Position numbers and translations under genes: made by a program. Positions 1-25,641 of a stretch of DNA of 26,989 nt are shown in pieces (the first letter of the stretch is position 1; every line of letters starts with the position of its first letter). The notes beneath the pieces are model-generated. The model saw only the letters and a list, made by a program, of their open reading frames with translations, did not search any database and was not told where the DNA came from. This stretch comes from Nanobdellati archaeon (lineage in GTDB: Archaea; B1Sed10-29; JAGVWA01), in the NCBI GenBank assembly GCA_018304505.1, contig JAGVWA010000009.1, positions 1-26,989 of the forward strand, read 5' to 3'.

Positions 1-27
1 TCCTGTTCCTGTTCCGCCGTCCCACAT
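1..27 (-). CDS. Start of a Met-Trp small protein, cut by left window edge
   Basis: Only the first nine codons are in the window and they read MWDGGTGTG on the minus strand. The start is supported by a good ribosome binding site (GGAGATGA, about 7 bases upstream) and by a TATA-like stretch at 62-70, 35-43 bases upstream. The Met-Trp beginning matches eight other small genes in this window, which is the main reason for calling it. Its length and fold cannot be seen. Confidence 0.45.
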
Positions 28-61
28 TAGTTGTCATCTCCGGTATAATTATACATCGTAT

Positions 62-70
62 CTATAAATA
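62..70 (-). promoter_or_regulatory. TATA box for the edge Met-Trp gene
   Basis: Read on the minus strand this is TATTTATAG, at a suitable distance upstream of the ATG at 27. It lies just beyond the stop of the winged-helix gene, so the Met-Trp gene probably has its own promoter. Confidence 0.4.
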
Positions 71-85
71 GCTTTTGGTAGACTG

Positions 86-454
86 CTAGAAGTTGACCCT
101 GATCGTGTCATCGTCAAAATCAAACTTTTTTTCGTCGGTGATTTTTCGCCACGCGTCGCTGATTCGGCGCAGGGCGCTTGAGAACTCGGTATTGAGATGG
201 TATCTCATTTGTCGCCTGTCCACTATGCCCAGTGACCTCAGCCTGACGAAGACCTTCTGCATCGTGGCCCGAGAAATTGATTTTTCGTTGCAAATTTTGT
301 TAAGGTGGTGGCCTTCGAGGCCGTTCTCGCTTTGTGAAATCGCTTTAATGAGGTGGGCCGCAGCGAACCTGTACTTGTCCTGCTGAGGGTACAGTATCCG
401 TGTTAATTCCTCCAGGGTCATGCCCGTGCTTGGTTTTTGATGATGAAAATCCAC
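86..454 (-). CDS. Winged-helix DNA-binding protein, 122 aa
   Basis: This is a small, probably cytoplasmic DNA-binding protein. Residues about 45-90 show the helix-turn-helix/wing pattern: a charged helix, then ISRATMQKVFVRLRSLGIVDRR, typical of a recognition helix followed by a wing strand. No ligand domain is visible. The chosen start is GTG at 454, preceded by TGGAG about 8 bases upstream; an ATG at 421 (MTLEELTRIL) would also keep the whole winged helix. It lies between the edge Met-Trp gene and the tRNA, and its upstream region holds the half-palindromic sequence GCACTAAATAGTAAA, so autoregulation is possible. I recognise the fold class but not a named family. Confidence 0.7.
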   Translation of the reverse strand: MDFHHQKPSTGMTLEELTRILYPQQDKYRFAAAHLIKAISQSENGLEGHHLNKICNEKSISRATMQKVFVRLRSLGIVDRRQMRYHLNTEFSSALRRISDAWRKITDEKKFDFDDDTIRVNF

Positions 455-493
455 GTTAATCGCTCCACACCGCGCGTTTTCCGTTGTTGGTTT

Positions 494-510
494 GCACTAA
501 ATAGTAAATC
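494..510. promoter_or_regulatory. Imperfect palindrome, operator-like
   Basis: GCACTAAATAGTAAATC resembles the better palindromes at 1043-1062 and near 2570 (core ACTAATTAGT). It sits about 40-55 bases upstream of the winged-helix gene that starts at 454, in the right place for an autoregulatory operator. Function is inferred from position and similarity only. Confidence 0.3.
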
Positions 511-546
511 AGGGTTTTTAAAACTAGCGGTTCACGTCGGGGGAAT

Positions 547-566
547 AAACCAGCGTGGGTTTAAAC
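547..566. repeat. 20-base direct repeat, copy 1
   Basis: The sequence AAACCAGCGTGGGTTTAAAC occurs exactly here and again at 768-787, flanking the tRNA gene. It contains the palindrome GTTTAAAC and the inverted pair AAACC/GGTTT, so it could be a promoter element (TTTAAA serves as a TATA box elsewhere in the window), a protein binding site or a scar of recombination. Confidence 0.7.
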
Positions 567-595
567 TGAAATTTACTAAACCGAGTTAAGGAAAG

Positions 596-603
596 CTTAT
601 ATT
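596..603 (+). promoter_or_regulatory. TATA box of tRNA-Leu
   Basis: CTTATATT preceded by the purine-rich GGAAAG (a BRE-like element) lies 30-37 bases upstream of the tRNA 5' end, the normal archaeal spacing. Confidence 0.6.
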
Positions 604-632
604 TGTTGAGAAACAAAAGGTAGTTTATAGGT

Positions 633-715
633 GCCAGGGTGCCATAGTCAGGTATTGGGCTCGCCTTAGGAGCGAGTGCCCACGGGCAACGCGGGTTCAA
701 ATCCCGCCCCTGGCG
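633..715 (+). tRNA. tRNA-Leu (anticodon UAG)
   Basis: The acceptor stem is GCCAGGG/CCCTGGC (633-639 with 708-714). The D arm pairs CCA with TGG (642-644/656-658) and has the GG pair in the loop. The anticodon stem is CTCGC/GCGAG with loop CTTAGGA, giving anticodon UAG at 667-669, which reads CUA/CUN leucine codons. The long variable arm (677-688, TGCCC/GGGCA) is as expected for class II tRNA, and the T arm is GCGGG-TTCAAAT-CCCGC (691-707). No CCA is encoded. Position 73 is G rather than the A usual for leucine tRNAs, and flanking bases AGGT/GCCT could extend the acceptor helix (one G-U pair). Leu is the best call from the anticodon; a long variable arm with G73 is otherwise a serine feature. 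Confidence 0.9.
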
Positions 716-767
716 CCTATTTCTCCACCACCCTAATTATGCAATTAGGAGTATAAAAACTTAATTG

Positions 768-787
768 AAACCAGCGTGGGTTTAAAC
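768..787. repeat. 20-base direct repeat, copy 2
   Basis: Exact second copy of AAACCAGCGTGGGTTTAAAC, 53 bases past the tRNA 3' end. A related inverted form (GCGGGTTTAAACC read on the minus strand) occurs near 26190-26202, upstream of the PIN-domain gene. Confidence 0.7.
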
Positions 788-826
788 CAGTTGAAATAGG
801 GCGCGGTAGCAAAATCGTTATAAGGG

Positions 827-946
827 ATGCTTGTTATAATTATCGCGGGCGTTCCAGAAGGAATAGCGAAAGGCAGCACCATAATTGCTAGTTTTAAGGT
901 GAGGAACGATGAAGCTGCCAGTACTATAGTCCGGCAAGCGGGTTGA
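827..946 (+). pseudogene. Possible pyruvate kinase C-terminal remnant
   Basis: A 39-codon frame from ATG at 827 contains LVIIIAGVPEGIAKGST. This resembles the last strands of pyruvate kinases (consensus LVVxTAGVPxGxxGST followed by xxIKVxxV). A TAA stop lies two codons upstream in the same frame and the rest of the enzyme (more than 400 residues) is absent because the tRNA gene lies just upstream. If the match is real, this is a fragment left by deletion or insertion near the tRNA. It could instead be a chance reading frame; the call rests on one short motif. Confidence 0.35.
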
Positions 947-1042
947 AGAAAGAAGAATTTGTAAAGGGAATATAAGTCGACCCACAAGTTTATACTGTTT
1001 AGTGTAAACGGGAATTCAGGGGGTGCGCCCGACAACTGCTTT

Positions 1043-1062
1043 CTTACACTAATTAGTGCAAG
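1043..1062. promoter_or_regulatory. 20-base near-perfect palindrome, likely operator
   Basis: CTTACACTAATTAGTGCAAG is a palindrome with one mismatched pair, and its central 12 bases CACTAATTAGTG are perfect. On its right a TATATATA box begins at 1063, so a protein bound here would touch a plus-strand promoter. A variant with the same ACTAATTAGT core lies upstream of the Met-Trp gene at 2535, and its left half TCTTACACTA recurs inverted three times at 4504-4560. The window encodes two winged-helix proteins that could bind it. Confidence 0.45.
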
Positions 1063-1110
1063 TATATATATGTACCTCTGGGGGGCACGCTTTCTCGACA
1101 ACGGCGTGCC
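1063..1110 (+). promoter_or_regulatory. TATA box followed by a 7-bp hairpin, possible short RNA start
   Basis: TATATATA at 1063-1070 is followed about 15 bases later by the inverted repeat GGCACGC (1084-1090)/GCGTGCC (1104-1110) with a 13-base loop. No open frame with a plausible start follows, so this may drive an untranslated RNA. Downstream limits cannot be set. Confidence 0.25.
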
Positions 1111-1222
1111 TGCAGAAACCGGGTTGTGCTTGGCCCCAGGAAGGGCCTGGCGGAATTTACTGATTAGTAGAAAACGGGGGCAACCACAGCCAGCTGGCAC
1201 CCAGTAGCATGAATTTATAAAC

Positions 1223-1300
1223 TTAAGTAATTTGGGGTTTTACTTAACCTAGGTTAAGTAATTTGGCGTTTTACTTAAGTTGGGTTAAGTGATTGCGGGG
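1223..1300. repeat. Three tandem 31-base repeats
   Basis: TTAAGTAATTTGG begins at 1223 and 1254, and a diverged copy TTAAGTGATTGCG begins at 1285, so the period is exactly 31 bases, close to three helical turns. Each of the first two units carries its own inverted repeat, TTAAGTAA paired with TTTACTTAA around a short G-rich centre. Repeating palindromes on one face of the helix suggest cooperative protein binding. Confidence 0.7.
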
Positions 1301-1341
1301 TTGTGGGCCCCGGCCACCGTTGGTCGGTTATGAAGAATCGT

Positions 1342-1446
1342 CATTATAATGATAAAATGGCATTATAATGGGGGAATGACACTACAATGATAAAATGACA
1401 TTACAATGAAAGAATGACATTATAATGAAGAAACGACATTATAAAC
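1342..1446. repeat. Six 19-base iterons
   Basis: The 10-base palindrome CATTATAATG or a one- to three-base variant starts at 1342, 1361, 1380, 1399, 1418 and 1437 (last copy cut short as CATTATAAA), a strict 19-base period. The linker is AT-rich, of the type ATAAAATGA. There are no unique spacers, so it is not a CRISPR array. Direct iterons of this kind are known from replication origins and from partition or autoregulation sites; which applies here cannot be decided from sequence. Confidence 0.75.
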
Positions 1447-1524
1447 CACACCCGGGCACCCCTCCGAGTACATTAGTGTGTGCTGAGCAAAGAGGACGAG
1501 GGGCACAGGGATTTGTAAATTTTG

Positions 1525-1545
1525 CTGTATACAAAACTTATACAG
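1525..1545. promoter_or_regulatory. Inverted repeat CTGTATA/TATACAG
   Basis: A perfect 7-bp inverted repeat with the 7-base loop CAAAACT lies about 65 bases past the stop of the minus-strand Met-Trp operon. It may be an operator or a transcript-end structure. Confidence 0.3.
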
Positions 1546-1608
1546 TTGTATAAAAAGTTTACTCGATTTGTGCTGTGCTAACAGGGCAGGTCAGCGTTTT
1601 ATTATCCA

Positions 1609-1938
1609 TTATGAGTTTTGCCTTTCAAGCTCTTCAAAGTCCCGCAGGGCTTCGAACGCGCTGCCCTTGGTGGTGTCTGATTCTGCGCTTGTCATGGCTG
1701 TTTTCAGTATACTCCTGATTTCAGCGACGCCTTCCGCCCTGTGAACCAGTGAGAATTGTTGGATCGTTGAGTCATTTCCACTATCGATCCGCAGCGAGAC
1801 GCAGGGCTTGGCGTTGCTGGCGGCGATTTGGAAGCTTCCCGTGTCTAGCCTGACGGTTTGTTCCGGGTCCATTTGCTGGGCCAGCGTCGCGTAGAATCCT
1901 GGCGCAGTGCTTTTTGTGGCTTCAAGTTTCACCCACAT
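1609..1938 (-). CDS. Met-Trp small protein, 109 aa (third gene of operon)
   Basis: The protein begins MWVKLEATKSTAPGF and has no recognised domain, membrane segment or signal peptide. It is soluble-looking, with a predicted helix near residues 15-25, several short strands (TVRLDTGSFQIAAS, CVSLRID) and a charged C-terminal helix ending DFEELERQNS. The ATG at 1938 is preferred over an in-frame start 15 bases upstream because it has GGAGG 7 bases before it and gives the Met-Trp beginning shared by its neighbours. It begins two bases after the stop of the previous gene, so the three Met-Trp genes at 1609-2535 are almost certainly co-transcribed. Function unknown. Confidence 0.75.
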   Translation of the reverse strand: MWVKLEATKSTAPGFYATLAQQMDPEQTVRLDTGSFQIAASNAKPCVSLRIDSGNDSTIQQFSLVHRAEGVAEIRSILKTAMTSAESDTTKGSAFEALRDFEELERQNS

Positions 1939-1940
1939 TT

Positions 1941-2210
1941 TTATTCCTCCCAATCAGTGTCCGAGCCGTCAGGTTCTGGTAAATCAAATGCGCGCATCGC
2001 GACGCTTGCAGGATGAAGCTCAATCATAGGATCGCCGCTATTTGGGACGTGCATTATCTGGCCGCTTCCAAGCAGGTCGAAGCTGCCTCGTTCGGTGTGT
2101 GCCGTGGCGAGGATGCCGCCGCCCCGTGCCGCGATTTCATCTAGGCGCTTTTGAAGCGCGTCTGGCAGTTCATCGTGCCTTTCGTCGTGCCACATTTTAT
2201 CATTCCACAT
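1941..2210 (-). CDS. Met-Trp small protein, 89 aa (second gene of operon)
   Basis: The sequence starts MWNDKMWHDER, so it has two possible ATG starts (2210 and 2195) and both encode Met-Trp. Residues ELPDALQKRLDEIAARG form a likely amphipathic helix. Similar helices follow the N terminus in the Met-Trp proteins at 2215-2535 and 6933-7259. The second half has short strands and a very acidic tail (DGSDTDWEE). The ribosome binding site GGTGA overlaps the stop codon of the upstream gene, which indicates translational coupling. No known family; probably cytoplasmic. Confidence 0.75.
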   Translation of the reverse strand: MWNDKMWHDERHDELPDALQKRLDEIAARGGGILATAHTERGSFDLLGSGQIMHVPNSGDPMIELHPASVAMRAFDLPEPDGSDTDWEE

Positions 2211-2214
2211 TATA

Positions 2215-2535
2215 TCACCAGCGAGTTGGCGTCATTTCGTGGATCGCGTCAAGGGCCCGTTGGGCCTGTTCATGTGGGCTGGCGCCGAGTTCATGAGTTA
2301 ATTCCTGCAGTGCCCGTGTCATGTCGCTATCAGTCAATTTGAGTGTCGTGGTTGTGTCATCAGTGAATGTCTTAATGTAAAGCGCCTCGGGGCCAAGGTA
2401 GTACGCCGTTCCCAGATCGCCTTCAGTGGCACCCCACCTGCCAAGGGCCCGTACCCCCCGGCTGTTGATTTCAGACTGAAACTGCCTTGACAATTCTTGG
2501 TCGCTGCGCGAATGCGCGGTTTGTGTTGTCCACAT
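2215..2535 (-). CDS. Met-Trp small protein, 106 aa (first gene of operon)
   Basis: The sequence starts MWTTQTAHSRSDQEL and has a predicted helix (ELSRQFQSEINSRG), then strands (TAYYLGPEALYIKTF, TTTTLKLTD), then a helix (MTRALQELTHELG); it ends in TRW. GGGGA 9-13 bases upstream supports the ATG at 2535. The upstream region carries the palindromic core ACTAATTAGT at 2572-2581 within a TATA-like sequence, so this operon is probably regulated by the protein that binds the 1043-1062 palindrome. The helix-strand-strand-helix arrangement is loosely shared with other Met-Trp proteins, but identity is low beyond the first two residues. Function unknown. Confidence 0.75.
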   Translation of the reverse strand: MWTTQTAHSRSDQELSRQFQSEINSRGVRALGRWGATEGDLGTAYYLGPEALYIKTFTDDTTTTLKLTDSDMTRALQELTHELGASPHEQAQRALDAIHEMTPTRW

Positions 2536-2565
2536 ATGAGTTCCCCATGAAAAGTGCAGAATAAC

Positions 2566-2587
2566 TTATGCACTAATTAGTATAAGA
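2566..2587. promoter_or_regulatory. Operator-like palindrome upstream of the Met-Trp operon
   Basis: The perfect core ACTAATTAGT at 2572-2581 lies between CTTAT and ATAAG arms. It is 37-46 bases upstream of the ATG at 2535 and overlaps the only TATA-like sequence there, so binding would be expected to block the promoter. Confidence 0.4.
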
Positions 2588-2620
2588 ACGTTTTGGCACT
2601 GCGCTGCAGGCCCTGGGCAA

Positions 2621-3232
2621 TTATTCAAATAGCCGCGACCTTGTCACCGCGCCTGTGAGGAGCATGCCAACGATTCCTACACTGAACAGCAGTATGAAGA
2701 GATACCAGGAGAAGGAGGCCACGTCCTGCAGGCCTGTTGCCGTGCTTACTTGGTTTATTGCCGTGACGTCAGTGACGTGTTCGATGCGTGCTGCTTCTGC
2801 GAACTCGCCGACCGTTAATGCGGCCCCAGCAGGGGCTTTGTAGTCGCCGGTTTCCTTGCCTGCTATGAGGAAGTTGTCGCGCGCCCCGAGCGCAACCCCT
2901 GGGGCTTCAGCGTAAGTGTATTTTGGAATTGTAAAGAAAACGAGGCTGGCGAGGAACACGATGAACACAACGGCCATGGCGGGTTTTATTATTTCCGGCG
3001 AGGCGTGATGACCAACAGTAATTGGCTGGTATTTCCTGTGGTGCCTGAACTGGCCTTTCTTGCTGAGTTTTTCGTACTCTTTGTCAGACAGCTGCAGAAT
3101 CAATGGGCCCGTGTATCCGCAGGTGGTGCAGTAGTAATCCTGAGGTAGGCCGAGGCCGAGCAAGGCGCCGGATTCCTTTCTGAGCGACGCATAATCGAGT
3201 TCCCGAGACCCGCATTTTGGGCAGACCTTCAT
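2621..3232 (-). CDS. Zinc-ribbon membrane protein, 203 aa
   Basis: The N terminus has a zinc ribbon, CPKCGS (Cys 4 and 7) and CTTCGYTG about 30 residues later, followed by a basic/His-rich segment (GQFRHHRKYQPITVGHH). Two hydrophobic segments follow: about residues 86-108 (MAVVFIVFLASLVFFTIPKY) and about 175-196 near the C terminus, with an extracytoplasmic loop of about 65 residues between. The ribbon therefore probably faces the cytoplasm. The start overlaps the upstream stop as ATGA and has GGTGATT before it, so it is co-expressed with the 118-residue gene upstream. I do not recognise a named family; an envelope-associated role is inference. Confidence 0.75.
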   Translation of the reverse strand: MKVCPKCGSRELDYASLRKESGALLGLGLPQDYYCTTCGYTGPLILQLSDKEYEKLSKKGQFRHHRKYQPITVGHHASPEIIKPAMAVVFIVFLASLVFFTIPKYTYAEAPGVALGARDNFLIAGKETGDYKAPAGAALTVGEFAEAARIEHVTDVTAINQVSTATGLQDVASFSWYLFILLFSVGIVGMLLTGAVTRSRLFE

Positions 3233-3585
3233 GAAATCACCCGAACCTGCGCCTGTGCCGCTATCGTGTCTGCAACGCGGTCGTACCTGTCTGGGTGCAT
3301 CATCACCTTTACGTCAACTGGATATGCCCCCGGCTCAATGTTGTAGCGTGCGTACAGCGGAAACGGCACAATTTTCTCCTGGCTGGGCTTTATGTAATCG
3401 ATGCGCACGCGCTTTTCCCGTGTCAGCCCCGTCTTGTCGAAACCGAGCATCAGCGGCGTTTTTGTAATTACACTTACCAACTGCGTTTCATTAGAGCGAT
3501 TTTTGATGATCACATTTAGAATTATCGGCGTCTTCTGGCCCATCATGAATCGAATGGGGTTGAGCCTTGTCGTCACGGAAAGCAT
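3229..3585 (-). CDS. Beta-rich protein with Ig-like strand pattern, 118 aa
   Basis: Alternating strands such as TPIILNVIIKNRSNETQL, VRIDYIKPSQEKIVPFPLYA and IEPGAYPVDVKVMMHP follow the pattern of a CARDB-like or Ig-like beta sandwich (NxSxE..., then PGxYxVxVxV). There is no signal peptide, so it may be cytoplasmic or act with the membrane protein encoded immediately downstream through a 4-base ATGA overlap. Length fits one sandwich domain. The fold assignment is inference from strand pattern only. Confidence 0.65.
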   Translation of the reverse strand: MLSVTTRLNPIRFMMGQKTPIILNVIIKNRSNETQLVSVITKTPLMLGFDKTGLTREKRVRIDYIKPSQEKIVPFPLYARYNIEPGAYPVDVKVMMHPDRYDRVADTIAAQAQVRVIS

Positions 3586-3621
3586 ACAAAGCTATTAAAG
3601 CCGCGGCGGTTTAATAACCTT

Positions 3622-4137
3622 ATGGCGGGCGCGTTGAGGGTTTTTCCAAAAGGCATGCCAGAATCAGAGCACGTAATGAGGACTTTTGTCATCCGTGACA
3701 TGGAGCTCCCCCGGGACGTTCTGCTGACGAAACAGTCGCTGCTCCGTTGGATCGCCTTGTCGTTGGGAATTATCAGCGAAAACGAAACCCGGAACACGAT
3801 CCTCCCGATTCTCGACGCATTACTTCACTTTCAAGTGAAAGAGCAAAAACCAGCATCGGCAAGGCAAGTCAAGGAATACCTCGATTCGCACGGGTGGGGT
3901 ATGCGCGACAAAATCGGCCTTGAGTCAAGGGTCACAGAGAAGGCCATCAGCTACCACCTCTCCAAGTTAGTTGACCGCGGAATCCTGCAGCAAGACAAGC
4001 GCAAGTATTCCTTTGCAAGGGACCCGGAAAACCCTGACATAGCCGGGTTCATTGACTTCTACGTCAAAACAAACACAGGCAAGTCCATTTCCAGGGCAAA
4101 GCGCGCCTTTGAAGAACTCAGGAACCTGTACCATTAG
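3622..4137 (+). CDS. Winged-helix transcriptional regulator, 171 aa
   Basis: The central part, about residues 55-130, reads as a winged-helix domain: NTILPILDALLHFQ, SARQVKEYLDSHGWGM, then VTEKAISYHLSKLVDRGILQ as recognition helix and QDKRKYSF as wing. The N-terminal 50 residues and C-terminal helices (KSISRAKRAFEELRNLYH) may be for dimerisation. An ATG at 3622 with TATTAAAG about 25 bases upstream suggests a leaderless message; ATG at 3655 is an alternative. It is divergent from the 3585 gene and precedes the AT-rich block and 21-base repeats at 4141-4560, which may be its binding sites. Confidence 0.75.
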   Translation: MAGALRVFPKGMPESEHVMRTFVIRDMELPRDVLLTKQSLLRWIALSLGIISENETRNTILPILDALLHFQVKEQKPASARQVKEYLDSHGWGMRDKIGLESRVTEKAISYHLSKLVDRGILQQDKRKYSFARDPENPDIAGFIDFYVKTNTGKSISRAKRAFEELRNLYH

Positions 4138-4140
4138 AAA

Positions 4141-4280
4141 TTTAGACATAATGGTTTTAATTATTATATCATATCATATTAATTAAATTTTATAAAAGAT
4201 AATTTATTAAATTAATTATAACTAATTAATCTTATCCTTTTTAATTTATAAAATCTAATTTATAAAATGTACTTTCTTAG
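4141..4280. other. Extremely AT-rich block, possible DNA-unwinding element
   Basis: Within 4161-4270 only nine of 110 bases are G or C, while flanking DNA is close to balanced or GC-rich. It is built of TTAATT and TTTATAAAAT motifs (TAATTTATAAAAT-like twice at 4242-4269). Such blocks serve as unwinding elements at origins or as strong promoter regions. It adjoins direct repeats and a winged-helix gene. Confidence 0.5.
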
Positions 4281-4503
4281 ACGTTCTTTGGCAGATTCTT
4301 AAACAATATTTGCAAAACCGTGCGTGCGTAAAACGGCCCGGAAAGGCCGAATTTGGGCTTTTCAGGGGTGGCTCGTGCGGTCGGCAGGCCCCCATCGGAG
4401 CTAGCCCCGGTTCAGAGGGTTTGGCTAGCCCAATGGCCTTGGCTGCGCCAGAGTGCGGTGGCGGGGCGCTTGGGCGTGGAGTTGCCCGGCACGTTGCGGG
4501 CGC

Positions 4504-4560
4504 GTAGTGTAAGATTCAAGGGGTGTAGTGTAAGATTCCGCAGGCGTAGTGTAAGACACA
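4504..4560. repeat. Three 21-base direct repeats with operator half-site
   Basis: GTAGTGTAAGA starts at 4504, 4525 and 4546, an exact 21-base period (two helical turns). The inverse TCTTACACTA is identical to the left half of the palindrome at 1042-1051, so the same regulator may bind both. The repeats lie downstream of the Met-Trp gene at 4708 and downstream of the regulator at 3622. Confidence 0.6.
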
Positions 4561-4707
4561 TTGGGCGTGAGCCTGTGTGTTCCCAACATGGCTGAAAGGG
4601 CGCAGAAAGTGAGACTTAGGTCCAAAAGTTCGTGGTACCTTAAAGCCAAAATGTGAGACCTTGGTGGAATTTGGGGCGCTGATTCCAACAGCAATATTGC
4701 AAAGGGG

Positions 4708-4953
4708 CTATTCGGGCTCGTCGGGGGCGCTTTCAAAGATTTCCGGGTCATTGAAGTCCCTAGTGTCCGGCACATCAAGCCGCTCATAGGAGATGCCCCG
4801 AAGGGCCGAGCCACGTTCAGTTAACTCCATGAGCACCTTATTGCCGTTTTCTGCTAGAACAAGCTTGAATTTGCCCTCTGGTGTCCTGAACCGGACTTCT
4901 TGGCCATGCACCAGCTTGCAGTCTTTCCGGTCAATGGCAATTGCACTCCACAT
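4708..4953 (-). CDS. Met-Trp small protein, 81 aa
   Basis: The sequence starts MWSAIAIDRKDCKL. The body is rich in beta strands (GQEVRFRTPEGKFKLVLAEN, NKVLMELT), consistent with a small barrel or sheet, and the last 20 residues are acidic and probably disordered (ending ESAPDEPE). There is no signal peptide or membrane segment. GGTTTATTACC about 25-35 bases upstream is a plausible TATA region, and the gene stands alone. It shares the Met-Trp start and size class with eight other genes here; function unknown. Confidence 0.75.
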   Translation of the reverse strand: MWSAIAIDRKDCKLVHGQEVRFRTPEGKFKLVLAENGNKVLMELTERGSALRGISYERLDVPDTRDFNDPEIFESAPDEPE

Positions 4954-5000
4954 AATTAGTTTCCACGCTTGAAGGTAATAAACCTGCTATCGTGGATTGT

Positions 5001-5561
5001 CTACTTGAGCTTGCTGCTAATGATTAAATCGTGCAAATTGTTCAAGGTTTTCCTGGCCATGTCCTGCTTGGGCTTCAACCCAGGCACAATGCTGCCGGGG
5101 TAAACGAGCTGCGAGTACTCGGCATACAGGTCCTCGAGGTCGTTGTACAGCTGCTCGGCGTCCTTTATTTCGGCTCTGCCGAGCATGTCCATGGCCACCC
5201 GTTTCAACTCACCGATGGCGTCACCCATGCCTGTCAGGTATGCTTCGCTCGGCACATTGAGGTTAGGCAGTTTTCTTGATTCATAGAACGAGATCAAGAT
5301 TGCGAGTTCTGCATATTCCTGGTAAGCTGCGCCAAGCATCTGCGCCACTAATTCAGGGTGCTCCTTGTGGCTGGCCTCGAGCTTCCTGATTTTGCCATCG
5401 ATGGTCTGGAGCTGGGCCTTTGCCTCTGCTGTTTTGCCCTTCTGGAATTCCCTGATGGCCTTGGCGCACGCTGGTATGATTTCGCGTGAGTCCTTTATCA
5501 GCTTGTCCCGGACGTCTTGTATTACGTCGAGCTCTTGTTTAATCTGTGCCAGTTTCGTCAT
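5001..5561 (-). CDS. Translin-family protein, 186 aa
   Basis: The protein is all helical, and its length (186 aa) and pattern fit archaeal translin homologues. It has an N-terminal helix (IKQELDVIQDVRDKLIKDSREIIPACAKAIREFQ), a central E-rich segment (YQEYAELAILISFYES), the LNVPSEAYLTGMGDAIGELKRVAMDML stretch typical of the translin core, and a C-terminal LYAEYSQLVYPGSIVPGLKPKQDMARKTL region. Translins bind single-stranded nucleic acids, and translin/TRAX complexes (C3PO) cleave RNA passenger strands and tRNA leaders; archaeal forms assemble as octamers. The gene overlaps the upstream Met-Trp gene by 23 bases, so they are co-expressed. That link is the only functional hint available for the Met-Trp proteins. 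Confidence 0.85.
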   Translation of the reverse strand: MTKLAQIKQELDVIQDVRDKLIKDSREIIPACAKAIREFQKGKTAEAKAQLQTIDGKIRKLEASHKEHPELVAQMLGAAYQEYAELAILISFYESRKLPNLNVPSEAYLTGMGDAIGELKRVAMDMLGRAEIKDAEQLYNDLEDLYAEYSQLVYPGSIVPGLKPKQDMARKTLNNLHDLIISSKLK

Positions 5562-5781
5562 CGAGAACTTTAGCTCCGGGGTTGTTTATTATACCTTCTG
5601 TACCCCTGATTGCAAACAGGGGCTCGCCGTGTACCCCTGGCTCTAAGGCTAGCGTTTTCGGGTCATACGCCACCAGGTGTTGTACACCCCGCGAATCCCT
5701 GACGCCAACTACCGAGAAATCCGGCCTCTGAGCCCTGATTGTGTTAGTAAGGGCGCTGCCAAAAATGTTGTTTTCCCACAT
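5539..5781 (-). CDS. Met-Trp small protein, 80 aa
   Basis: The sequence starts MWENNIFGSALTNTI. It is mostly short strands (DFSVVGVRDSRGVQHLVAYDP, EPLFAIRGTEG) with a glycine-rich middle and an acidic C terminus (DDETGTD). ATG at 5781 is chosen because GAGGTGA lies 9-16 bases upstream and because it gives Met-Trp; an in-frame GTG at 5793 would overlap the upstream stop. It lies between another Met-Trp gene and the translin gene, whose start it overlaps by 23 bases. No known family. Confidence 0.75.
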   Translation of the reverse strand: MWENNIFGSALTNTIRAQRPDFSVVGVRDSRGVQHLVAYDPKTLALEPGVHGEPLFAIRGTEGIINNPGAKVLDDETGTD

Positions 5782-5789
5782 GTTATTTT

Positions 5790-6080
5790 TCACCTCTTAT
5801 TCGGAATTTTTTCCTCGCCCTGATACAAAAGCGTGTACCGCAGGGCTTCGCCGCGCGCGTCTACCTGGATTTGTTTTACTTCATGGAGCCATGCGTCCCG
5901 GGGCTCGGGCGCGGTGTGGTTCCGGTCGTCGAATTCTAAAGGCACCCAAAACGCGCCTTCATTGACGTTGCGCAGCTCGATTTTGCCATCTTGTTGTTTT
6001 GCAATGACGCGTGACTGGCCGATCATTTCAAATGTCTCGCTGTATAATGGGTGCCCCTCTGTCACCGTTGTTTTCCACAT
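5790..6080 (-). CDS. Met-Trp small protein, 96 aa (first gene of translin operon)
   Basis: The sequence starts MWKTTVTEGHPLYSE. Strands such as SRVIAKQQDGKIELRNV, AFWVPLEFDD and HEVKQIQVDARGEALRYTLLYQ suggest a compact beta protein; a basic tail (EEKIPNKR) ends it. AGAGG 5-9 bases upstream supports ATG at 6080, and CCTTTAAATA at 6111-6120 is a TATA box. The next gene starts within a few bases, so this one leads the operon Met-Trp, Met-Trp, translin. Function unknown. Confidence 0.75.
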   Translation of the reverse strand: MWKTTVTEGHPLYSETFEMIGQSRVIAKQQDGKIELRNVNEGAFWVPLEFDDRNHTAPEPRDAWLHEVKQIQVDARGEALRYTLLYQGEEKIPNKR

Positions 6081-6580: not shown

Positions 6581-6827
6581 TAATACCTTGGATGTCTTCC
6601 TCTCTTATTCCCCGTGCTTCCAATCGTTTTTTCCCTTGCTTTGCAATGCTTTTAAGTTTACTGATTAATTCTTCTTTTGAGGGCAGGTCTATGCGCTTGA
6701 GTATAACCATGTCCGCGCTGCTTATTACAGCAAACACCGTGCCTTCTGTTGCATGAATCATTGCTCGTGTGCTCTGGGGAATAACGATTTGGCCTTTCGA
6801 GGACATCCTTACTGTTTCGACACTCAC
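6558..6827 (-). CDS. AbrB/SpoVT-type antitoxin
   Basis: The N-terminal MSVETVRMSSKGQIVIPQS is the classic swapped-hairpin AbrB domain, followed by the degenerate second half (GTVFAVISSADMVILKRI) and a charged helical tail that would bind the PIN toxin. Such proteins neutralise the toxin and repress their own operon. ATG at 6827 is preceded by GGGAGAG. The pair ends in a 23-base overlap with the PIN gene. Confidence 0.88.
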   Translation of the reverse strand: MSVETVRMSSKGQIVIPQSTRAMIHATEGTVFAVISSADMVILKRIDLPSKEELISKLKSIAKQGKKRLEARGIREEDIQGIIEKQRRR

Positions 6828-6932
6828 ATCTCTCCCTCGGTATTCTTACTTTCTTACTTTAAGAATGTTCTATTATATAAAGTTTCCTTCTAGAAGCGGC
6901 GCGGTCAAGTTATCTCAGCTGGGCCCGCGCGG

Positions 6933-7259
6933 TTAGAAGAGCAGCAGCTGCCTTTCTGTGCGATCCCGGCGTGCGAGTTCTGGGTGCCACACTGCTTCTT
7001 GTTTAATCCTGTAGTTTTCCGCGTCACGCTGGGCTTGTGCAGCTGCAACCCGCGCGTCATTCCCGGTCATCTCAAAGGCCTCTCTGACGGCGCCACCCGG
7101 CCCATCGATCGTAAGAATTGTGAACCCGTCTAATTGACCGTCTTTGATAAATGCCCTTGATCGGGGGTGCAGTTGCAGGGCAGGTGTCGAGTTTATTCTG
7201 TCTTGCAGCGTCTGCGGCAGGGTGCCTTTCTCTGCGGTGTGATAACTAATTTTCCACAT
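6933..7259 (-). CDS. Met-Trp small protein, 108 aa
   Basis: The sequence starts MWKISYHTAEKGTLPQTL. The TLPQTLQDRINSTPAL helix resembles ELPDALQKRLDE and ELSRQFQSEINSRG in the Met-Trp proteins at 1941 and 2215, the best sign of relatedness beyond the first two residues. Strands DGFTILTIDG and a long C-terminal helix (NDARVAAAQAQRDAENYRI) follow. GTTAAATACC, overlapping the end of the upstream membrane-protein gene, may be its promoter. No known family. Confidence 0.75.
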   Translation of the reverse strand: MWKISYHTAEKGTLPQTLQDRINSTPALQLHPRSRAFIKDGQLDGFTILTIDGPGGAVREAFEMTGNDARVAAAQAQRDAENYRIKQEAVWHPELARRDRTERQLLLF

Positions 7260-15708: not shown

Positions 15709-16562
15709 TACAGCCCGGCGCGCGGCTCAACCTGACAAGGTACAGAATTGATGCCCCGCAAAAACCGTCGACGCTGGCGCTGATTCTGCGAAAGACCCTC
15801 GTAAACCAGAAGCTTGCCAAGATAGAGCAGTATGATTTTGACCGCGTCGTTACGATGCATTTCCAGAATCACAAGTTCATCATTGAGTTCTTTGGCAAGG
15901 GTAACATGGTTCTTACCGACAACGATTTAAAGATAATAGCGGTGTGGCGCGGCGAGATATGGAAAGACCGCGCCCTGAAACGAAACGAAACCTATCAGTA
16001 TCCTGGCCAGAGTGGCTTTTCTCCAATTGACGTGCCGTTCAGCGTTTTTGAAACCATTTTCGACAAACTTGACGCTGTGCGAAGCATGGCCCTGAATCTG
16101 AAACTCGGCGGCGCATATGCAGAGGAGATCTGCAATTTGGCAGGCGTTGACAAGAACACGCAAAAGCCGGCAAAGGAACAGGTCATAAAACTGTTTGAAG
16201 CAATGCGGGCACTGTTTGCAAAACCCCCTCAGCCGTGCATCCAGAATAACGAGGTGATGCCGTTTCCCCTTGGGGATATGGCTATTCAAAAGCAGTTTAA
16301 GACGCTGAACGAGGCGGTTGACGAATTCTATCTTGATGAATCAATAAGCAGCGCCGCTGTAAAGGACTCTAGGGTAGAGAAGCTCGCGCACAGGCTGGCG
16401 GAGCAGCAGGAAACCCTCGGCAGGTTCGCGCAGGAAATCGAGGAAAACAAGCAGAAGGGAGACTTGATTTACAGCAACTTCGCGAATGTGCAGGAAATCC
16501 TCGGGGACAAGAAAACAAAGCGCGAAAAAGACGGCTCAATCATTGTCGATTTGTCAGATTGA
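15564..16562 (+). CDS. NFACT-N domain protein (Rqc2/NEMF/FbpA family), C-terminally short
   Basis: The N-terminal half matches the NFACT-N domain of the ribosome quality-control factor Rqc2/RqcH: LNLTRYRID, the conserved Asp-Arg of DFDRVVTMHF (residues 93-94), IIEFFGKGNMVLTD and IIAVWRG. A helix-hairpin-helix-like segment (KLGGAYAEEICNLAGVD) and the first coiled-coil arm (VEKLAHRLAEQQETLGRF to GDLIYSNFANVQEIL) follow. The chain ends at 332 residues, whereas full proteins have about 550-700 and carry the second coil arm and the NFACT-R domain. AGGAGAG upstream makes ATG at 15564 certain, 145 bases inside the rhomboid frame. It overlaps the convergent transporter by 9 bases. Confidence 0.85.
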   Translation: MGSAVTSFVLNKLLAEISGEIEDQYLEKVQQISAETFKFAFRGKKELLIQPGARLNLTRYRIDAPQKPSTLALILRKTLVNQKLAKIEQYDFDRVVTMHFQNHKFIIEFFGKGNMVLTDNDLKIIAVWRGEIWKDRALKRNETYQYPGQSGFSPIDVPFSVFETIFDKLDAVRSMALNLKLGGAYAEEICNLAGVDKNTQKPAKEQVIKLFEAMRALFAKPPQPCIQNNEVMPFPLGDMAIQKQFKTLNEAVDEFYLDESISSAAVKDSRVEKLAHRLAEQQETLGRFAQEIEENKQKGDLIYSNFANVQEILGDKKTKREKDGSIIVDLSD

Positions 16563-17384
16563 TAGAAGCCACACAGTCGGTAAAGCGAGGGCGATGGCCA
16601 GCCACGTTTTCTTGTCGAGTTTTTCCTTCAAAACCAGCGCACTCAGGAACACAGTCGGAATCAGATTCATGTTGGCAATCGGCACGACTACTGATAATGG
16701 GCCAAGCGCAAATGCCCGAAAAATGCTGATAACGCCTAACGACAGTAGGACACTGACGATGGCAAAGTCTTTCAAGGCAGCTGATTTTACCTTCCTGATT
16801 TCCCGGGCTTTCATAGTCGCATTGTAAACAATCAGGAAGAGCAGGGTTGAGGTTGAGAGAATCGCAAAACCAAGCAGCGGATTCATCAAGTCTGCTGATG
16901 ATTTGATGAAGTAATTCATTATGCCAAACGAAGCCATGGCCCCAATGGCGTGCAGGAGCCATGCGCCCCCGCGAATTTTTTCTGGAGAATACACAAGAAA
17001 AATCACAATGATGCTCAATAGAATGCCAACAGAGGCCGTGCTGTTTAGTGTTTCACCAAGCAAAAGGATACCGAGCGGCACAGCGATTACTGCGTTGAGG
17101 TTGTATATTGTGGTTATAGTTGATACGGGTCCTGTTTTTAAGGCAGTGTAGACAAACATGATGGCGAGGAATGTGAAAAAGCCGCCTGCAAGGGGCCAGA
17201 TTGCGTGCTGCAGTGAAACAGAAACACCAAACAACAGCACGGCAACCCAGGAAATTATTGCCGAACCTGTGCTCTCTATGAGCGCAGCCACGCTTGGCTC
17301 AATGTTTTTCAGGGCCACCTTTCTGTAGAAGGCGCCTGCACCAATAAGCAGCGCGCCCAGGACAGCGAAGATAACGTAGCTCAT
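16554..17384 (-). CDS. EamA/DMT-family transporter, 276 aa
   Basis: Ten hydrophobic helices in two halves of five, each half being an EamA domain: the first ends around GILLLGETLNSTASVGILLSIIVIFLV and the second around SALVLKEKLDKKTWLAIALALPTVWLL. These E-containing loops (LLGETL, VLKEKL) are the usual EamA signature. Such proteins export small metabolites or drugs; the substrate is unknown. It begins 6 bases after the preceding gene and is last in a four-gene operon. Confidence 0.85.
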   Translation of the reverse strand: MSYVIFAVLGALLIGAGAFYRKVALKNIEPSVAALIESTGSAIISWVAVLLFGVSVSLQHAIWPLAGGFFTFLAIMFVYTALKTGPVSTITTIYNLNAVIAVPLGILLLGETLNSTASVGILLSIIVIFLVYSPEKIRGGAWLLHAIGAMASFGIMNYFIKSSADLMNPLLGFAILSTSTLLFLIVYNATMKAREIRKVKSAALKDFAIVSVLLSLGVISIFRAFALGPLSVVVPIANMNLIPTVFLSALVLKEKLDKKTWLAIALALPTVWLLSI

Positions 17385-25398: not shown

Positions 25399-25641
25399 TT
25401 ATCTAGTAAAGTGTTCCGGCCTGATTTCTTCTTCGAAGCCGTAGAGTATTATCGTGCCAGTTTCTACGTCCTTGACGATCCTGTCTGCGAACGGTCCAAT
25501 GCGGTCTTTGCTGTTTATCAGTGCGTGCTGCATTGTGCGCACAGACTCCCTGTCGCCGTTTCCAAATCGCACTTCATACTCTGGTTCTTGTGCTACCATG
25601 ACTTCGAATTCGTGTATTCCTGTTACGTTTTCATACCACAT
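25399..25641 (-). CDS. Met-Trp small protein, 80 aa
   Basis: The sequence starts MWYENVTGIHEFEVM. It is beta-rich (HEFEVMVAQEPEYEVRFGNGD, ETGTIILYGFEEEI) with one helix (VRTMQHALINSKDRI). The start is supported by GTGATGA upstream and a TATA box (TTTTTATATGG) 37-47 bases upstream. It belongs to the same size and start class as the cluster at 1-7259 but lies about 18 kb away, next to a defence island. Function unknown. Confidence 0.75.
   Translation of the reverse strand: MWYENVTGIHEFEVMVAQEPEYEVRFGNGDRESVRTMQHALINSKDRIGPFADRIVKDVETGTIILYGFEEEIRPEHFTR

What the first reader, a model, noticed from the sequence alone, without database searches (positions are those of the whole stretch)
1342..1446. 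Six iterons with an exact 19-base period
A palindromic 10-mer (CATTATAATG) repeats six times at strictly 19 bases in a gene-free stretch. Regular iterons usually bind a replication initiator, partition protein or autoregulator. The nearest gene is the Met-Trp operon rather than a known Rep or Par gene, so the binding protein is not obvious.
Basis: seen in the sequence. Interest (0 to 1): 0.65.

Follow-up and report, generated by a model that had tools for sequence, protein, structure and literature searches.

The report
Lineage-specific iteron array near candidate origin
A small archaeon carries a short, regularly repeated DNA-binding site, found nowhere else in its genome, inside what looks like the conserved place where its class starts copying its chromosome; which protein binds it is unknown.

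Summary
The array is real: 19-bp units at 1342-1446, 66 of 84 register matches against at most 44 in shuffles. Two corrections apply. Only three of the six copies are the exact palindrome CATTATAATG, and the sixth is truncated. The unit occurs nowhere else in the genome as an array, and every other CATTAYAATG hit but one lies in coding DNA.

The array sits in a 660-bp noncoding gap between converging genes. That gap is inside a roughly 2-kb lineage-specific insert, because two order-relatives have only ~180-190 bp there.

The insert lies inside a locus conserved across the class. That locus has two AT-rich elements, a unidirectional AAAGTGAGAG repeat array beside a winged-helix gene, and a strand-balanced GC-skew inflection in three genomes. 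I read it as a candidate chromosomal replication origin that is not next to orc1. The skew sign differs between lineages, so origin versus terminus is not proven.

Best reading: a species-specific multi-site binding platform added to an origin-like locus. The nearby winged-helix protein at 86-454 probably binds a different palindrome (ACTAATTAGT). The binding protein and the function remain unshown. The array is a new member of a known kind; the conserved locus is the more valuable result.

The parts
1342..1446 (.). 19-bp iteron array: six units of CATTAYAATG-NNNN-AATGR (exact palindrome in units 1, 2, 5; last unit truncated)
   Evidence: unique in genome
1330..1341 (.). degenerate half-unit preceding the array (ATGAAGAATCGT)
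1223..1302 (.). second, unrelated array: 31-bp unit x2.5 with nested palindrome TTACTTAACCTAGGTTAAGTAA
947..1608 (.). noncoding gap between convergent transcription units that holds both arrays
   Evidence: coding scores
455..2600 (.). lineage-specific insert between conserved neighbours (the gap is about 180-190 bp in G003 and G005)
633..717 (+). tRNA-Leu inside the insert
827..946 (+). 39-aa ORF with coding-like hexamer score behind a shared GGTTTAAAC/TTATAAGG promoter element
1609..2535 (-). three Met-Trp (MW) small-protein genes; their 3' end faces the array
86..454 (-). winged-helix protein 1 (wHTH1), conserved in G003 and G005
1044..1061 (.). TTACACTAATTAGTGCAA, probable wHTH1 operator; weaker copies at 990-1007 and 2568-2585
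   Evidence: similar motifs upstream of the wHTH1 orthologs
3622..4137 (+). winged-helix protein 3 (wHTH3), conserved and syntenic in the class
4122..4282 (.). AT-rich element 2 (up to 92% AT per 100 bp), the most AT-rich place in the sampled genome; syntenic counterparts after wHTH3 in relatives
4502..4556 (+). GCGTAGTGTAAGAT x3 at 21 bp; the same motif lies upstream of one orc1 gene and of two AAA ATPase genes
5001..5561 (-). translin-family gene, conserved edge of the locus
1..99 (.). exact 99-bp overlap with the end of contig C13, which carries the AAAGTGAGAG/AT-rich element 1 and wHTH2

Best explanation
The array is a cluster of six phased binding sites for one locus-dedicated, probably dimeric, DNA-binding protein. 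It was acquired by this lineage inside a conserved origin-like locus. Bound side by side every 19 bp (about 1.8 helical turns), the protein would build one nucleoprotein complex that modulates events at that locus, most likely origin firing, handcuffing or segregation, much as iterons do on plasmids. Shown: the array, its uniqueness, its noncoding convergent setting, the lineage-specific insert, and the conserved locus around it. Inferred: that a protein binds it, that the protein is dimeric, and that the effect concerns replication rather than transcription.
For: Periodicity far beyond chance. A single array in the genome, with the other CATTAYAATG matches in coding DNA except one near the end of C3. 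Palindromic core and AATGR conserved while the intervening bases vary, GGGG against ATAA, as expected for sites and not for a fresh duplication. The array lies between convergent genes, so it is not an ordinary promoter operator. It sits between the two most AT-rich 100-mers of C13+C11, 3 kb from wHTH2, where an AAAGTGAGAG array plus AT-rich element is conserved across the class (Poisson P 7e-4 to 4e-12 in 8 of 10 genomes). Strand-balanced fourfold-site skew has its extremum within about 1-3 kb of wHTH2 in G000 (P 0.0015), G012 (P 0.0005) and G003 (P 0.004). Relatives carry other, species-specific repeat arrays in the same locus.
Against: The array is absent from 60 searched relatives and lies in an insert, so it is not part of the conserved core. 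The skew switch has opposite sign in G000 (and weakly G005) versus G012 and G003, and G011 and G005 are not significant. orc1 genes are not adjacent. No binding protein was identified. The conserved AAAGTGAGAG motif is not enriched in the window itself.
Confidence: 0.4

Rival explanations
1. Operator array for transcription: the units bind a regulator that controls an unannotated promoter in the noncoding gap, for instance a leftward TATA-like site (AAGTTTATAAATTC, around 1221-1208) or a noncoding RNA.
For: Both arrays lie directly upstream of that leftward TATA-like sequence (sequence). The gap holds several other palindromes, including wHTH1-type operators.
Against: The leftward ORF at 745-1200 scores as noncoding. 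No Rfam family was found. Folds of the 1085-1215 strip are unremarkable (z -0.3 and -0.8). Known genes converge on the gap, so no gene start adjoins it.
Confidence: 0.3
2. A neutral minisatellite produced by slippage, with no function.
For: The array is absent from relatives, the units are short and the last is truncated; other tandem repeats exist in the genome.
Against: Divergence is concentrated in a few spacer columns while the palindrome and AATGR are kept, and the array lies beside a second palindromic array.
Confidence: 0.2
3. Remnant of an integrated plasmid or other element whose own iterons or centromere these are.
For: It lies in a lineage-specific insert with a tRNA-Leu and orphan small genes.
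Against: No integrase, Rep or Par gene was recognised in the insert; no matching array in viral contigs. MW-type genes are spread through the genome rather than confined to the insert.
Confidence: 0.1

Closest known systems
Iteron arrays of plasmid and secondary-chromosome origins
   Same: Short palindromic units at a strict period in a noncoding stretch, confined to one locus.
   Different: No adjacent Rep gene; on a chromosomal contig; binding protein unknown.
Archaeal chromosomal origins with ORB repeats and an AT-rich unwinding region (review PMC4010727)
   Same: The surrounding conserved locus has AT-rich elements flanked by direct repeats and a skew inflection.
   Different: The conserved repeat is AAAGTGAGAG, orc1/cdc6 is not adjacent, and the 19-bp array is not the conserved repeat.
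WhiP-associated oriC3 of Sulfolobus (noted in PMC4010727)
   Same: A winged-helix gene, rather than cdc6, adjoins the origin-like repeats.
   Different: No homology between wHTH2 or wHTH3 and WhiP was tested. The wHTH2 profile matches archaeal AF_1382 (PDB 2qvo), deposited as an uncharacterized protein.

Membership tests
Iteron array | Several direct copies of one unit at constant spacing, beyond chance | tested here: met
Iteron array | Confined to one locus of the replicon | tested here: met
Iteron array | Cognate Rep-type initiator encoded nearby | tested here: not met
   no Rep-like protein among the ten window ORFs (86-5793) scanned against Pfam; wHTH proteins only
Iteron array | Bound by the initiator and needed for replication | not testable with these tools
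   needs binding and deletion assays
Archaeal Orc1/Cdc6-type origin (surrounding locus) | AT-rich element flanked by conserved repeats | tested here: met
Archaeal Orc1/Cdc6-type origin (surrounding locus) | orc1/cdc6 gene adjacent | tested here: not met
   orc1 genes on C14 in G000, and about 33-75 kb away in G003 and G005
Archaeal Orc1/Cdc6-type origin (surrounding locus) | Strand-independent skew switch at the site, negative to positive | tested here: inconclusive
   switch present in G000, G012 and G003, but the sign is reversed in the last two
ParABS or SegAB centromere | Partition ATPase and binding-protein pair beside the sites | tested here: inconclusive
   none seen among the window ORFs scanned with Pfam; the whole genome was not searched for them

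The most novel reading that the evidence does not exclude
The class uses a chromosomal origin unlike described archaeal ones: two AT-rich elements bracket a winged-helix gene module, with unidirectional AAAGTGAGAG boxes in place of classical ORBs and no adjacent orc1. Individual species bolt their own iteron arrays, such as this 19-bp one, onto it as species-specific origin control.
Probability: 0.25. Interest if true: 0.75.

Novelty: new member of a known kind. Interest (0 to 1): 0.5.

Why it matters
If the locus is the origin, it gives a concrete, testable chromosomal origin for a whole class of small-genome archaea where orc1 proximity would mislead. It also shows species-specific iterons evolving inside a conserved origin region. 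The array alone, without that context, would be an ordinary if unassigned binding-site cluster.

Tried and rejected
Simple repeat scattered over many loci: rejected, single array. Array as binding site of wHTH1: disfavoured, because its likely operator is a YACTAATTAGTR-type palindrome found upstream of its own gene in G003 and G005. Coding or known RNA in the gap: not supported. The strong minus-strand fold of the array (z -4.2) was set aside, since any tandem of palindromes pairs with itself. ORB-type sites upstream of orc1: none seen by eye for the orc1 genes inspected, apart from two GTAGTGTAAGA copies at one G000 copy. Promoter modelling by EM gave no position-specific motif. Scans of viral contigs and genome contigs for the array found nothing; genome contigs and viral scans with winged-helix proteins gave no relatives.

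Full report
OBSERVATION. The window is the whole of contig C11 of a 917-kb, 21-contig genome that has two Orc1/Cdc6 genes, a family which among 14 control genomes rings only in archaea. The 19-bp period over 1342-1446 is real and is the strongest short periodicity in the window: 66 of 84 register matches, against a maximum of 44 in 300 shuffles of 947-1608 (TRF score 115). Only units 1, 2 and 5 carry the exact palindrome CATTATAATG. Units 3 and 4 differ by two and one bases, and unit 6 is truncated. The conserved unit is CATTAYAATG-NNNN-AATGR.

UNIQUENESS. Two exact units in register occur only here, and with three mismatches only scattered isolated hits appear in 60 relatives. Of the other CATTAYAATG matches in the genome, all but one lie inside long ORFs; the exception is near the end of C3. 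No match was found in viral contigs for two units, or in the species collection for three.

IMMEDIATE SETTING. The gap is noncoding from 947 to 1608. The 39-aa ORF at 827-946 has a coding-like score, while the overlapping 151-aa reverse ORF does not. Genes to the left (tRNA-Leu, the small ORF) read rightward and the Met-Trp operon reads leftward, so the array lies between 3' ends. A second array, 31 bp x 2.5, lies at 1223-1302.

LINEAGE-SPECIFIC INSERT. In two order-relatives, G003 and G005, orthologs of the wHTH at 86-454 and of the Zn-ribbon membrane protein at 2621-3232 are neighbours separated by about 180-190 bp. In the window they are about 2.1 kb apart. The tRNA, both arrays and three Met-Trp genes are therefore most simply an addition in this lineage.

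THE LOCUS AROUND IT. The end of contig C13 overlaps the window's first 99 bases exactly, so the two contigs are adjacent. Across the class a block recurs in varying completeness: PRC-barrel gene, repeat-rich gap, wHTH2, p3229, wHTH3, AT-rich gap, translin gene. Upstream of wHTH2 there is an AT-rich stretch and an array of AAAGTGAGAG boxes mostly in one orientation, the first box about 168 bp from the aligned wHTH2 motif in most genomes. Enrichment is P 7e-4 to 4e-12 in 8 of 10 genomes, while G017 and the truncated G013 are not significant. In G012, G011 and G014 these boxes cluster only there within 52-92 kb; in G003 the boxes with the preceding A do not cluster, although GTGAGR does. The two AT-rich elements are the two most AT-rich 100-mers in the stretches examined of G000 (C13+C11), G003, G005 and G014.

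SKEW. Fourfold-site GC skew, balanced for gene strand, changes from -0.148 to +0.090 across the locus in G000 and from +0.183 to -0.137 in G012. The extremum lies 1-3 kb from wHTH2 in G000, G012 and G003, with gene-block permutation P 0.0015, 0.0005 and 0.004. The sign differs between lineages, and G005 and G011 are not significant. I take this as a replication landmark; AT-rich elements with repeats favour an origin over a terminus, but this is inference.

INTERPRETATION. The array is most likely a multi-site binding platform for a locus-dedicated protein, added by this lineage inside an origin-like locus. Its role in replication or segregation is inferred from position. A transcriptional role is the main rival. 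The wHTH at 86-454 probably recognises ACTAATTAGT palindromes, which occur upstream of its own gene in relatives and at the Met-Trp operon's promoter, so it is a poor candidate; wHTH3 and wHTH2 remain untested.

Noticed in passing
window and sampled contigs; e.g. window 1609-2535, 4708-4953, 5539-6080, 6933-7259, 25399-25641: A large, divergent set of short proteins that all begin Met-Trp: 42 ORFs listed in about 241 kb of sampled DNA, including one 370-aa AAA ATPase and several likely spurious ORFs.
   Followed up: partly
window 4502-4556; G000 C14:1383-1414, C9:88210-88260, C13:18841-19027: GTAGTGTAAGA direct repeats at 20-22-bp spacing (21-bp array in the window), also upstream of one orc1 gene and of two AAA ATPase genes.
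   Followed up: partly
window 547-566 and 768-787; C5, C3, C14, C6 loci L018, L024, L026, L027: A shared promoter block, GGTTTAAAC(C) followed by TTGCAAAATCGTTATAAGG-like sequence, upstream of several unrelated genes, two of them apparently related PIN-like ORFs.
   Followed up: partly
L065 (C13) 16111-16600: A run of G/T-rich tandem repeats (16-28-bp periods) overlapping or beside a short ORF, near the skew extremum.
   Followed up: no
window 26248 onward and L031 (C9:86710-89101): A near-duplicate of the gene at the window's right end lies at the end of contig C9, beside an AAA_14 ATPase and three GTAGTGTAAGA repeats.
   Followed up: no
window 1323-1455, minus strand: The minus strand of the array folds far better than shuffles (z -4.2), the plus strand much less (z -1.9).
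   Followed up: partly
L147 (G004) 6821-6947 and L040 (C13) upstream of the AAA gene: TTAGTCA/TAGTCA repeats occur beside the same locus in two different families of the order.
   Followed up: no
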